Assembly (NCBI GenBank): GCA_017415025.1
Contig: JAFQJH010000012.1
Location: 1-34,870 of the forward strand
DNA: 34,870 nucleotides
Direction: 5' to 3'
From: Clostridia bacterium
GTDB lineage: Bacteria > Bacillota > Clostridia > Oscillospirales > Acutalibacteraceae
Positions 8,719-34,870 of this stretch are shown one piece after another (position 1 is the stretch's first letter; each line of letters opens with the position of its first letter). The translations under genes and the position numbers were made by a program. The notes under the pieces were generated by a model. It was not told where the DNA came from, did no database searches, and worked only from the letters and a program-made list of their open reading frames with translations.

Positions 8719-8730
8719 TTAGAAAATCAA

Positions 8731-8805
8731 ATACAGGGGTGCTGTGCAAACGGCTGAGATTATACCCTATAACCTGATGCGGATAATGCCGACGTAGGAA
8801 GATAT
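8731..8805 (+). promoter_or_regulatory. TPP riboswitch (THI element)
   Basis: The conserved parts of the thiamine-pyrophosphate aptamer appear in order: ACAGGGGTGC, CGGCTGAGA, TACCC, AACCTGAT, GGATAATGCC and GACGTAGGAAG. It is followed by a terminator and then thiT, so binding of TPP should stop expression of the thiamine transporter. Confidence 0.96.
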
Positions 8806-8822
8806 TGTTATACTAAAGACTT

Positions 8823-32545: not shown

Positions 32546-32584
32546 AAAAGCCAAGATACCGATAGAAGCAGTATCTTGGCTTTT
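32546..32584 (-). terminator. Terminator of trpB
   Basis: A perfect 14-bp stem (32546-32559 with 32571-32584) is followed on the minus strand by TTTTTAATA; its A/T symmetry also allows termination in the other direction. Confidence 0.85.
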
Positions 32585-32603
32585 GGAGTTATTTGTTTTT
32601 ACA

Positions 32604-33824
32604 CTATCTAATACCGTATTTTTCAATGATATAGTCCATATCCTTATCGCCTCTGCCCGAGAGGTTGATAAGCACGGAACCCTTGCCCATCGTCTTTGCA
32701 AGCTTCATACCGTAAGCAACGGCATGGGAACTTTCAATAGCCGGGATGATACCCTCCATTCTGGAAAGCTCAAAGAATGCATCAATGGTTTCGTCGTCAG
32801 TAACAACATCATATTTTACTCTGCCCAAGTCGTGCAGGAATGCGTGCTCCGGTCCGCAGGATGGATAATCCAAACCGCTTGCCACGGAATACACGGGAGC
32901 AGGATCACCGTTTTCATCCTTCAGCATAATGCTGTTAAAGCCATGCATGATGCCTTCTTCACCATAGGTGAGACTTGCGGCGTGGTCACCCATTTTAATG
33001 CCTCTTCCGAGAGGCTCTACACCGTAAATATCAACGGGGTCGTTCAAAAAGCCTGAGAAAAGTCCCATTGCGTTTGAGCCGCCGCCCACACAGGCAACCA
33101 CCGCGTCGGGAAGCTCACCCGTCATATCAATGAACTGTTCTCTTGCTTCAATACCAACAACACTCTGAAAGTCTCTCACCATCATCGGGAACGGATGAGG
33201 GCCGACGACTGAACCTATGCAGTAGATAGCGTCCTTATACTCATTGCAATATGCGGCGAAGGCAGCGTCTACTGCTTCTTTCAAGGTTTGCAGACCATCT
33301 GTAACCTCGACCACTCTTGCACCAAGGATCTTCATTCTTGCCACATTGGGAGCCTGCTTTTTAATATCTACAGCACCCATATAGATATCACACTCCAAGC
33401 CGAAATATGCGGCGGCGGTAGCAAGAGCCACACCGTGCTGACCTGCACCTGTTTCGGCAATGACCTTTTTCTTTCCCATATACTTTGCCAGCAGCACTTC
33501 ACCCATACAGTGATTGAGCTTGTGTGCGCCGGTGTGGTTCAAATCCTCGCGCTTCACATAGAGCTGAACGCCTGTGCCGATTTTATCCGAAAGCCTTGCA
33601 AGATGGGAGATTGGTGTCGGTCTGCCTTGAAATTCCTTGCGTATACGGCGAAGCTCGTCGATAAATTTGCGGGACTTGCAGATGGTCTGGTATGCTTCGC
33701 TGATCTCATTCATAGCGACCTGCAGTTCGGGCGGGATATAGGAGCCGCCGTACTTGCCGAAGTAGCCGTTTGTGTCGGGATAGTTCTTAAAATAGGTATC
33801 AAAATCAATATTGTTAAATTTCAT
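32604..33824 (-). CDS. trpB: Tryptophan synthase beta chain, orphan copy
   Basis: TrpB joins indole and L-serine to tryptophan with pyridoxal phosphate. The 406-residue protein has [13 protein letters not shown], the PLP lysine in [15 protein letters not shown] (Lys102), [10 protein letters not shown], the phosphate loop VGGGSNAMG and LSGRGDKD. The frame extends five codons upstream, but GGAGG lies inside this extension, so the ATG at 33824 is chosen. No trpA or other trp gene is next to it, so the enzyme probably uses indole from outside or partners with a TrpA encoded elsewhere. The upstream T-box and leader peptide control it by tryptophan supply. GC content and codon use differ from the genes on its right side in the window only slightly. 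Confidence 0.95.
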
Positions 33825-33853
33825 TGTGGTTTCCTCCATAAATAAGTTTTGTT

Positions 33854-33937
33854 TTAGGTTGGTTTGGGGTTTACGATCTCTTTCTGTTTGATTTCATATA
33901 TTCGGCGCAAGGAGCGCCACCAGCGTTTTGTCATCAT
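33854..33937 (-). CDS. Trp-rich leader peptide of trpB
   Basis: A 27-codon ORF with an AAGGAGG ribosome site before its ATG (33935-33937) lies between the T-box terminator region and trpB. Its residues 4-12 are KRWWRSLRR, and the two consecutive Trp codons lie at 33917-33922. A GGCGC/GCGCC hairpin (33904-33908 with 33914-33918) overlaps the second Trp codon. The stop is 29 bases before the trpB start. The arrangement is that of a ribosome-stalling leader, similar in idea to the leader peptide of the Bacillus rtpA (anti-TRAP) operon. Confidence 0.7.
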
Positions 33938-33960
33938 TATATTTACCTCCTTAATACAGG

Positions 33961-34001
33961 AAAAAGCTCCTTTGACTTATATCTTCCGTCAAAGGAGCTT
34001 T
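33961..34001 (-). terminator. Second terminator-like hairpin in the trpB leader
   Basis: On the minus strand a 14-bp stem (33988-34001 with 33963-33976) is followed by TTTTT. It lies between the T-box terminator and the leader peptide and has no obvious antiterminator of its own. Confidence 0.75.
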
Positions 34002-34009
34002 CATGTAAA

Positions 34010-34312
34010 ACAAAAACGTCCTTGACAGAAATATAAACTCTGTCAAGGACGAATAGGTACAAATAAAGTACGACACTATCCGCGGTGCCACCTTGATTCA
34101 CGGTATGACCCGTGCACTTAGCAGGATACCAACATATCCCCGGCAACTGACGTATGCCAACACGTTGCAGAATACTCTGGGAAATCCCATTTGACTGCAC
34201 CCTCAGCGGTCCATTTGACAACTTGTTTCTTACCTGACTCTCAGCAACACAGGTTCTCTGTAAAGGCATTATTGCCGTTATCTCCGCTTCAACGGTTTGA
34301 AATATTAACTTG
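34010..34312 (-). promoter_or_regulatory. T-box riboswitch, tryptophan type
   Basis: The leader has the hallmark antiterminator motif AGGTGGCACCGCGG (minus strand, 34081-34094 region), the GCTGAGAG element of stem I, and a terminator with a 13-bp stem (34017-34029 with 34039-34051) followed by T5. The likely specifier codon is UGG (34211-34213) in AAATGGACCGC, which reads tRNA-Trp and fits trpB downstream. Uncharged tRNA-Trp should favour the antiterminator and let transcription pass. Confidence 0.93.
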
Positions 34313-34318
34313 CTATAT

Positions 34319-34347
34319 ATTATACTCACATCATATGCTCGTGTCAA
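34319..34347 (-). promoter_or_regulatory. Consensus promoter of the trpB leader
   Basis: TTGACA (34342-34347) and TATAAT (34319-34324) on the minus strand are separated by exactly 17 bases, a perfect sigma-70 promoter. It is strong, as is usual when expression is limited by attenuation. Confidence 0.85.
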
Positions 34348-34436
34348 TAGTTTCACGGTAAAATCTCAAAATAAAGAGTTCATTTATTGTTCTATTAGTC
34401 TGTTGATAAATCTCACTTTCCATTTCTGATTCCTCT

Positions 34437-34870
34437 TTATGAATATGTTTTAATAATTTCTTCTGCAACAATCCGTTTTGAAATGCATCGATCCATCGCC
34501 TGTTTTTCTATGTAACGATGTGCCTCCGGTTCGTCCAATTTGAGTTCGCGGATAAGTATCCATTTTGCGCGGTTGACGATACGGATTTCTTCCATTTTTT
34601 CTTCAATGGATAGTGTTTTCTTTTCAGTCTTTCTAAGTTTTTCCCGTGCACTTGAAAGCCAGCTGAGAGCAATTGCCATTGTCGGCTTTGAGGTTGGCTT
34701 TGGAAGCACAAACACACCGTGTTCTGCAACCTTGTCGTAGATTTCTTCTTGAAGTTCTGCCCGTACCATCAGGAGTACGACGGTCTCTTTTGAACTACCT
34801 GTGTCAATCGCAAAACGAGTACCTATATCATCAGGGAGCGGAGAGTTGATGATAACAAAATCAAAAGCAC
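34437..34870 (-). CDS. ANTAR-domain response regulator, 5' part outside the window
   Basis: The frame stays open to the window edge, so the N-terminal part is missing here. What is visible begins inside a receiver-like domain (FDFVIINSPLPDDIGTRFA, VVLLMVRAELQEEIYDKV, GVFVLPKP) and ends with an ANTAR RNA-binding domain (KMEEIRIVNRAKWILI through AHRYIEKQAMDRCISKR). ANTAR regulators of this NasT/AmiR type bind tandem hairpins in leaders, often of nitrogen genes such as glutamine synthetase. An ATG at 34769 is internal to the receiver fold and is not the start. The target cannot be told from this window. Confidence 0.85.
   Translation of the reverse strand, partial: AFDFVIINSPLPDDIGTRFAIDTGSSKETVVLLMVRAELQEEIYDKVAEHGVFVLPKPTSKPTMAIALSWLSSAREKLRKTEKKTLSIEEKMEEIRIVNRAKWILIRELKLDEPEAHRYIEKQAMDRCISKRIVAEEIIKTYS

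What the first reader, a model, noticed from the sequence alone, without database searches (positions are those of the whole stretch)
33854..34312. Layered tryptophan leader: T-box, second terminator and a Trp-Trp leader peptide before an orphan trpB
Seen: a consensus promoter, a T-box with a UGG specifier and its terminator, a second terminator-like hairpin, and then a 27-codon ORF with two adjacent Trp codons and a strong ribosome site, all before one trpB gene. Established: Bacillus rtpA uses a T-box plus a Trp leader peptide, so two sensing layers on one mRNA are known. Inferred: charged-tRNA level is sensed during transcription and again by ribosome stalling during translation. The second hairpin has no visible antiterminator, and the leader peptide is longer than known examples. 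This combination on trpB itself seems little described.
Basis: partly seen in the sequence, partly recalled or inferred. Interest (0 to 1): 0.72.

Follow-up and report, generated by a model that had tools for sequence, protein, structure and literature searches.

The report
Tryptophan-gated leader with conserved one-Trp mini-ORF
Upstream of a lone tryptophan-synthase gene in an uncultured Clostridia bacterium lies a tRNA-sensing RNA switch, a second terminator that seems wired to the same switch, and a tiny Trp-containing reading frame shared by many relatives, which suggests a second way of sensing tryptophan that has not yet been tested in the laboratory.

Summary
The interpretation needs changing. 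(1) What is conserved is not WW or the length but a short uORF, M-x-L-L-T-K-R-W, one Trp at codon 6-8, mostly CGA-UGG-CGN: 62 of 101 related trpB leaders (0.15 expected), 6 of 18 in a second batch. It also precedes TrpX-like, TrpB-like and ECF-transporter genes. CGA, 4% of Arg codons in trpB, precedes Trp in 62 of 69 uORFs. (2) T2 has a candidate antiterminator, the 3' arm of T1: the pairing is stronger within loci than after swapping (47 of 100,000 permutations), the mirror pairing is not. T2 looks like a backup terminator slaved to the T-box, though only kinetically. (3) rtpA-type spacing is absent; ermC-type unmasking of the trpB ribosome site has weak support in some relatives (9 of 68) and none in the window. 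How the uORF acts remains inference.

The parts
34319..34347 (-). sigma-70-type promoter, TTGACA-17-TATAAT
   Evidence: 12 of 12 consensus
34063..34301 (-). T-box leader, specifier UGG (AAAUGGACC at 34216-34208), T-box sequence 34094-34080
   Evidence: Rfam RF00230, 84.7 bits, E 7e-19, below gathering score 93; coordinates
34017..34051 (-). T1, T-box terminator: 14-bp stem and U-tract
34017..34037 (-). T1 loop and 3' arm: proposed antiterminator strand for T2
   Evidence: 17 bp with T2 5' arm + loop, -17.1 kcal/mol; swap tests
33962..34002 (-). T2, second terminator-like hairpin, 15 bp; short U5 tract
   Evidence: 13 of 85 T-box trpB loci scanned hold a T2 by my inspection
33945..33952 (-). 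Shine-Dalgarno sequence of the uORF (AAGGAGGU)
   Evidence: sequence
33854..33937 (-). u[30 protein letters not shown]
   Evidence: conserved core [L/M]-T-K-R-W
33917..33922 (-). two Trp codons; the first is the conserved one
33904..33919 (-). hairpin UGGCGC-UCCUU-GCGCC directly after the first Trp codon, of a kind seen where the CGA codon is missing
   Evidence: -10.6 kcal/mol
32607..33824 (-). orphan, monocistronic trpB (406 aa from ATG 33824)
   Evidence: TIGR00263 530 bits; no trpA or IGPS found in the MAG
32546..32584 (-). hairpin with U-tract after trpB, probable terminator
   Evidence: sequence read by eye; not listed by the scan

Best explanation
A three-tier tryptophan leader on one mRNA. 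Tier 1 (anatomy shown, mechanism known for T-boxes): uncharged tRNA-Trp bound to the UGG-specifier T-box captures the 5' arm of T1, so T1 does not form. Tier 2 (complementarity shown, action inferred): the 3' arm of T1, now free, pairs with the 5' arm and loop of T2 as they emerge and holds T2 open; when T1 forms, T2 is free to stop polymerases that leak past T1. Tier 3 (conservation shown, action inferred): a ribosome starts at the strong SD just after the terminators and reads a short uORF whose one critical Trp codon sits at position 6-8, mostly after a rare CGA (I:A wobble), in the window's clade with a hairpin at the Trp codon instead. When charged tRNA-Trp is short, the ribosome pauses there. 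Because the place of Trp is fixed relative to the uORF start but free relative to trpB, and the window shows no unmasking of the trpB site, the pause most likely raises trpB output by parking one ribosome near the 5' end of the read-through mRNA, protecting it or keeping it coupled; in some relatives unmasking of the trpB SD may add to this.
For: T-box: Rfam match; 9 of 12 tested uORF-bearing leaders match RF00230 at E 0.01 or better, 5 of them above the gathering score. uORF: 62 of 101 trpB leaders, 59 of them with T-box motif, 0.15 expected from shuffles; Trp at codon 6-8 in 58 of 62; second batch 6 of 18 close and 7 of 21 more distant trpB leaders. Leu, Thr and Lys codons vary synonymously (83 rows pre-selected on a loose codon pattern, so the core is partly conditioned). 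CGA before Trp 62 of 69 against 4.2% of Arg codons in 66 trpB ORFs. Same uORF before TrpX-like, TrpB-like and ECF genes, in 18 of 245 genomes of the order (13 judged real) and 11 of 216 of the class (10 judged real), reversed-pattern control 0 in both. T2: within-locus pairing -16.5 against -14.5 kcal/mol swapped, 47 of 100,000 permutations, 15 loci; mirror pairing 86,773 of 100,000; 7 of 50,000 with 12 loci, 2 of 50,000 with 9 of them. L234 keeps the complementary apex on an unrelated GC-rich lower stem. L092 has a T1 3'-arm change that leaves a mismatch in T1 but pairs with T2. Seven uORFs without CGA have hairpins at Trp, median -10.6 against -1.7 kcal/mol for 62 with CGA, p 2.6e-5, 9.7e-5 without L030.
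Against: At equilibrium T2 still forms in the modelled ON state in 11 of 13 loci, so the slaved antitermination must be kinetic; in 3 of 13 (L030, L092, L019) the model forms the cross-pair strongly even without blocking T1, and partly in the window, L094 and L100. T2 is in only 13 of 85 scanned T-box trpB leaders; 4 of 13 fail the loop-shuffle test at 0.05. The window's U-tract after T2 is short. 24 of 83 and 7 of 13 T-box trpB leaders lack the strict uORF. A modelled ribosome at Trp frees the trpB SD more than in shuffles (0.091 against 0.028, p 0.015; 9 of 68 loci at 0.05, 3.3 expected), which favours a rival. One of the seven non-CGA hairpins (L033) is weak (-3.0), 12 of 62 CGA uORFs reach -4 or lower, and five of the seven are probably one clade (no tree made). 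trpB of order- and class-level carriers is still 82-95% identical to the window's, so the spread may be horizontal transfer or misbinned contigs. No expression, ribosome or RNA-end data.
Confidence: 0.45

Rival explanations
1. Translation attenuation, ermC-like: the ribosome stalled at Trp opens a structure that hides the trpB ribosome site (or, rtpA-like, a ribosome finishing the uORF covers it).
For: Masking a ribosome at Trp raises SD access by 0.091 on average against 0.028 in shuffled spacers (Wilcoxon p 0.015); 9 of 68 loci at 0.05 or below, 3.3 expected, p 0.006; the gain is largest with the ribosome at Trp among six positions tried (uncorrected). L024, without T-box, has CAAGAUAA after Trp complementary to UUAUCUUG beside the trpB SD (by eye). 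rtpA is T-box regulated and also controlled at translation (passages of PMC11255114).
Against: The SD is not more hidden than in shuffles (0.44 against 0.46 unpaired, 68 loci); no gain in the window (-0.04) or L030 (-0.14), nor a significant one in L024; other ribosome positions give weaker gains of the same sign; stop-to-ATG distance ranges from -4 to over 100 nt, 29 nt in the window; window segment z -0.45.
Confidence: 0.25
2. T2 is a lineage-specific duplicate of T1 acting as an independent backup terminator, with no switch of its own.
For: T2 5' arms resemble T1 5' arms (CUCCUUUGAC against CCUUGACAG); T2 wins at equilibrium in 11 of 13 ON models.
Against: Mirror pairing is not kept (86,773 of 100,000); T2 loops are complementary to T1 3' in 9 of 13; L234 T2 has an unrelated lower stem but complementary apex; 22 of 76 T1-to-uORF segments are complementary to T1 3' at 0.05 or below (3.8 expected; two near-copy pairs among them), 17 of them outside the T2 set.
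Confidence: 0.25
3. The uORF is an arrest peptide that senses free L-Trp in the ribosome tunnel, as TnaC does, not the charging of tRNA-Trp.
For: Amino-acid-level conservation of L-T-K-R before Trp with free synonymous choice; a single Trp; 6 of 83 aligned uORFs have a UGA stop right after Trp.
Against: Arrest by free Trp before a Trp synthesis gene makes sense only if it represses; a peptide of 6-8 residues is very short; the near-fixed CGA codon points to decoding.
Confidence: 0.13
4. The T-box does all the regulation; the uORF is a decoy ribosome site or an SD-based mRNA stabiliser in which the Trp codon has no role.
For: 24 of 83 and 7 of 13 T-box trpB leaders do without the strict uORF.
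Against: Trp is kept in place in 62 of 101 leaders against 0.15 by chance, and the uORF is tied to Trp genes.
Confidence: 0.12

Closest known systems
T-box leader (Rfam RF00230), tRNA-Trp type, as on trpXYZ of Streptococcus suis (PMC9382623, passages read)
   Same: UGG specifier, T-box sequence, antiterminator/terminator choice, Trp gene downstream
   Different: Second terminator with a candidate antiterminator supplied by T1, and a conserved Trp uORF; the term 'leader peptide' does not occur in the main text of the S. suis paper
Bacillus subtilis rtpA (yczA) leader: T-box plus Trp leader peptide (Chen and Yanofsky 2003, 2004; seen only as references in PMC11255114, details recalled)
   Same: T-box and Trp leader peptide in series on one mRNA
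   Different: Target is trpB, not anti-TRAP; one conserved Trp in L-T-K-R-W context rather than several; stop codon not held near the downstream SD
erm-type leader peptides (recalled; abstract starts of PMC5118997 and PMC9178857 seen in the listing)
   Same: Short uORF with an early stall site. PMC9178857 names stalling and mRNA stabilisation as believed mechanisms for ermB; the title of PMC5118997 says mRNA stability acts independently of stalling
   Different: No SD-hiding hairpin common to all members; linked to an amino acid, not to antibiotics
rimP leader with a second terminator in tandem (PMC2965389, passages read)
   Same: Two terminators in series with a potential antiterminator
   Different: Found in Gammaproteobacteria; described without a T-box or larger conserved element

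Membership tests
T-box riboswitch (RF00230) | Covariance-model match at gathering score | tested here: inconclusive
   84.7 bits against 93, E 7e-19, full length 1-219; of 12 uORF-bearing relatives 5 reach 98.6-111.4 bits, 4 match below 93, 3 do not match
T-box riboswitch (RF00230) | T-box sequence UGGNACCGCG and alternative antiterminator/terminator | tested here: met
   GGUGGCACCGCGG at 34094-34080 in the Rfam alignment; T1 at 34051-34017
T-box riboswitch (RF00230) | Binding of uncharged cognate tRNA | not testable with these tools
   UGG specifier read from sequence only
rtpA-type T-box plus leader peptide | Leader peptide with several Trp codons (recalled) | tested here: not met
   The window has two, but only one is conserved; WW in 3 of 69
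rtpA-type T-box plus leader peptide | uORF stop placed so that a terminating ribosome covers the next SD (recalled) | tested here: not met
   Stop-to-ATG -4 to over 100 nt; 29 nt in the window
ermC-type translation attenuator | Downstream SD hidden by a structure opened by the stalled ribosome | tested here: inconclusive
   Not in the window (gain -0.04); SD not more hidden than in shuffles; but mean gain 0.091 against 0.028 over 68 relatives, 9 significant
Classical trp attenuator (trpL type) | Terminator after the leader peptide, before the structural gene | tested here: not met

The most novel reading that the evidence does not exclude
A Trp regulon shared by many Clostridia uses a minimal charged-tRNA sensor in translation: a near-invariant CGA-UGG codon pair at codons 5-8 of a tiny uORF, where the weak inosine-adenine pair in the P site makes one Trp codon enough to arrest the ribosome; it works downstream of a T-box whose terminator's spent arm disarms a second terminator.
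Probability: 0.3. Interest if true: 0.8.

Novelty: new variant of a known kind. Interest (0 to 1): 0.62.

Why it matters
T-box plus leader peptide in series is known to me (recalled) from one Bacillus case. Here a single conserved uORF motif marks several types of Trp genes in many Clostridia genomes, so it is a regulon signature that annotation can use and a test bed for how one codon pair can sense tRNA charging. The slaved second terminator shows how a one-input RNA switch could get a tighter off state without a second sensor, a design that can be tested in vitro.

Tried and rejected
Family-wide hiding of the trpB SD: not found (68 loci); a later control of the stalled state gave modest support for unmasking in some relatives, so this is kept as a rival and my odds were lowered for the best explanation (0.50 to 0.45) and raised for this rival (0.17 to 0.25). 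Pairing of the freed T2 3' arm (AAGGAGC) with GCUCCUU in the uORF: present in the window, weakened in L030, absent in L015 and L084 by eye. An overlapping ORF from the AUG inside CGAUGG: lost in CGC variants, often stops at once (by eye). Frameshift at CGA-UGG into trpB: Trp-to-ATG distances are not in one frame. A promoter hidden in TTGACA/TTAACA codons: these codons vary synonymously. Mere duplication of T1: see mirror and L234 tests. Phage records: no megablast match of 32600-34400.

Rows dropped or added: L106 (chance-like ORF); 4 of 105 upstream regions (under 150 nt or under 80% identity). Of the 40 stretches fetched, only 3 entered, because 60 coding bases rarely gave a tblastn match; 39 of the 40 (one too short) were counted later: close group, T-box with uORF 6, T-box without 7, neither 5; distant group, T-box with uORF 3, uORF without T-box motif 4, T-box without uORF 5, neither 9. 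L030 was dropped as near copy before the permutation tests, 18 of 85 loci had two or more hairpins and I kept 13 as T2 by inspection (dropped L117, L108, L126, L149, L054). The 9-locus set was chosen by me and still holds the one pair flagged as over 0.8 alike (L019, L142). L237 was dropped as near copy of L232; L235 was left out because it is identical to L085 (800 of 800 bases). T2 limits of L232, L234, L237 and L238 were set by eye. In one search the script took T2 for T1 in L016 and L092. In one search, 5 of 18 hits (L210-L213, L224), 7 of 25 hits, and, 1 of 12 places (L212) were judged chance.

Novelty limits: two T-box reviews (PMC2650889, PMC2271356) are not held, so a description there cannot be excluded. 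Listings that showed no such uORF or slaved terminator; passages read of PMC2965389, PMC9382623, PMC9481103 and PMC11255114.

Full report
Setting. The window is contig 11 of a MAG of 2.09 Mb, 84% complete. The finding lies on the minus strand at its right end. Reading 5' to 3': a 12-of-12 promoter (34347-34319), a T-box (34301-34063, 84.7 bits, E 7e-19, below the gathering score of 93) with AAAUGGACC as specifier region, T1 (34051-34017), T2 (34002-33962), SD AAGGAGG, the 27-codon ORF (33937-33854), SD GGAGG and trpB from ATG 33824. The leader folds better than 100 of 100 shuffles. trpB is canonical, stands alone and is followed by a hairpin. Neither trpA nor indole-glycerol-phosphate synthase was found in the MAG, while both searches ring in 14 of 14 control genomes; so the gene may serve indole salvage (inference; the MAG is incomplete).

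The uORF. I collected trpB relatives from 300 genomes of the family (258 with a match, only the closest used), from named genome contigs, mostly titled Clostridia or Oscillospiraceae (best 80 of 585 kept), and by fetching further stretches. Of 112 usable upstream regions 105 were distinct. 69 held a short ORF with Arg-Trp near its start (one, L106, looks like chance). In a stricter count 101 regions were examined (4 dropped): 83 have a T-box motif, 62 have [KR]RW within the first 14 residues behind an SD, 59 have both; shuffling the region after the T-box gives 0.15. The 24 T-box leaders without it include some with degenerate forms (L015, L033, L095). Trp is codon 6 to 8 in 58 of 62. Most of the 40 fetched stretches had missed these counts; examined afterwards, 6 of 18 close and 7 of 21 more distant trpB leaders have the uORF, a lower rate. 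The consensus is M-x-L-L-T-K-R-W-R. Leu, Thr and Lys codons change synonymously (Thr: ACA 41, ACC 15, ACT 6, ACG 6 of 83), which speaks for translation (rows chosen by a loose codon pattern). The codon before Trp is CGA in 62 of 69 (CGC 4, others 3), although CGA is 4.2% and AGA 45% of Arg codons in 66 trpB ORFs. The codon after Trp is CGN in 55 of 69, never AGA or AGG. The window has CGC and two Trp codons; a second Trp is in 3 of 69.

The uORF marks Trp genes, not only trpB. A pattern of SD, ATG and the core hit 25 places in 23 of 300 family genomes, with 6 hits of the reversed pattern. By upstream T-box and downstream gene I judge 18 real and 7 chance. Downstream genes include TrpX-like substrate-binding proteins (best NCBIfam model ABC_SBP_TrpX, 144-259 bits, below its cut-off of 390), TrpB-like enzymes (TIGR01415 above cut-off) and, from the order search, an ECF S component (PF07155). 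In the order, 18 of 245 genomes hit (control 0), 13 real by downstream gene, in 7 families; in the class, 11 of 216 (control 0), 10 genomes in 8 families with 11 places, each with a T-box motif. Their trpB is 82-95% identical to the window's where present, and one class-level locus, L235, is identical to L085; so the trpB-leader unit may have moved between lineages, or contigs may be misbinned. L024 (trpB), L098 (trpB) and L227 (TrpB-like) have the uORF without a T-box match at E 0.01. L232 and L237 hold two uORFs in series, L139 a doubled motif.

T2 and its antiterminator. In 85 T-box trpB leaders scanned I accept 13 as having a second terminator-like hairpin. The loop and 3' arm of T1 pair with the 5' arm and loop of T2: 17 bp, -17.1 kcal/mol, in the window. 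If this were only a trace of duplication, the mirror pairing (T1 5' with T2 3') should be as good. It is not: for 12 loci -16.8 within loci against -13.9 swapped (0 of 20,000 permutations), mirror -7.3 against -8.3. With row and column effects removed and L100 trimmed: 7 of 50,000; in a subset of 9: 2 of 50,000; with 15 loci: -16.5 against -14.5, 47 of 100,000, mirror 86,773 of 100,000. Shuffling only the T2 loop weakens the pairing at 0.05 or less in 9 of 13 (the window and L030 are near copies). L234 has a T2 whose GC-rich lower stem is unlike T1, yet its apex holds CUUGGCAGAAA, complementary to UUUCUGUCAAG of T1. Beyond T2, 22 of 76 segments between T1 and the uORF are more complementary to the T1 3' arm than 95% of shuffles (3.8 expected), 17 of them outside the T2 set. 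In L085, L086 and L214 the uORF SD lies in or pairs with this element (by eye), so the same trick may control uORF translation there (inference).

Limits of the T2 model. With the T1 5' arm blocked, transcripts reaching the T2 loop form the cross-pair in 13 of 13 loci (5.7 to 20.2 expected pairs), but complete transcripts return to T2 in 11 of 13, and in L030, L092 and L019 the cross-pair also appears without blocking. The switch must therefore be kinetic; that this is usual for attenuators is recalled.

How the uORF acts. The trpB SD is not more hidden than in shuffles (mean unpaired 0.44 against 0.46, 68 loci); the window's uORF-trpB segment is not unusually structured (z -0.45). Stop-to-ATG distance runs from -4 to over 100 nt, while Trp stays at codon 6-8. 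So what is fixed is the place of Trp relative to the uORF start, not to trpB, which fits a ribosome parked early on the mRNA. Against this, a ribosome modelled at Trp raises SD access by 0.091 against 0.028 in shuffles (p 0.015; 9 of 68 loci at 0.05, 3.3 expected, p 0.006), most at Trp but with weaker gains at other positions (six tried, uncorrected); the window gives -0.04. Unmasking may therefore operate in some relatives. The seven uORFs without CGA carry a hairpin at the Trp codon (median -10.6 kcal/mol; L033 only -3.0), the 62 with CGA mostly do not (median -1.7; 12 at -4 or lower), p 2.6e-5; by trpB identity at most about three independent origins, no tree made. Both features could slow a ribosome at this codon. 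That I:A pairs decode poorly is recalled; the papers listed were not read.

Verdict. Observation confirmed; interpretation partly supported and changed: a conserved single-Trp uORF of a Trp regulon, and a second terminator probably slaved to the T-box. The kind (T-box plus Trp leader peptide) is known from rtpA; the motif, its spread and the slaved terminator I did not find described.

Noticed in passing
window 34437-34769 (-): ANTAR-domain protein (PF03861, E 1.3e-16) directly upstream on the same strand; an RNA-binding domain, probably a separate transcript.
   Followed up: partly
G000 contig 25, 47669-48102 (-) (L011, L013): Two T-box matches 15 bases apart (74.7 and 49.5 bits, both below gathering score), perhaps a tandem T-box.
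   Followed up: no
window 8725-8818 (+): TPP riboswitch, 65 bits.
   Followed up: no
L232, L237: Two Trp uORFs in series (MFIFSKRWQGLKHE and MYILSKCW...), the second with a strong hairpin right after Trp and no CGA.
   Followed up: partly
L139: The motif LLTKRWR is duplicated within one uORF (MLLTKRWRSLLTKRWRGLNESEN).
   Followed up: no
L214, L118: Between T1 and the uORF an element CCUCCGGCAGAAC can pair with the uORF SD and is complementary to the T1 3' arm: a possible translation switch for the uORF.
   Followed up: partly
G000: No trpA and no IGPS found in the MAG although trpB is present; possible indole salvage.
   Followed up: partly
L228-L237 and L215-L226: trpB with its leader is 82-95% identical to the window's even in order- and class-level genomes: horizontal transfer or misbinned contigs.
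   Followed up: partly
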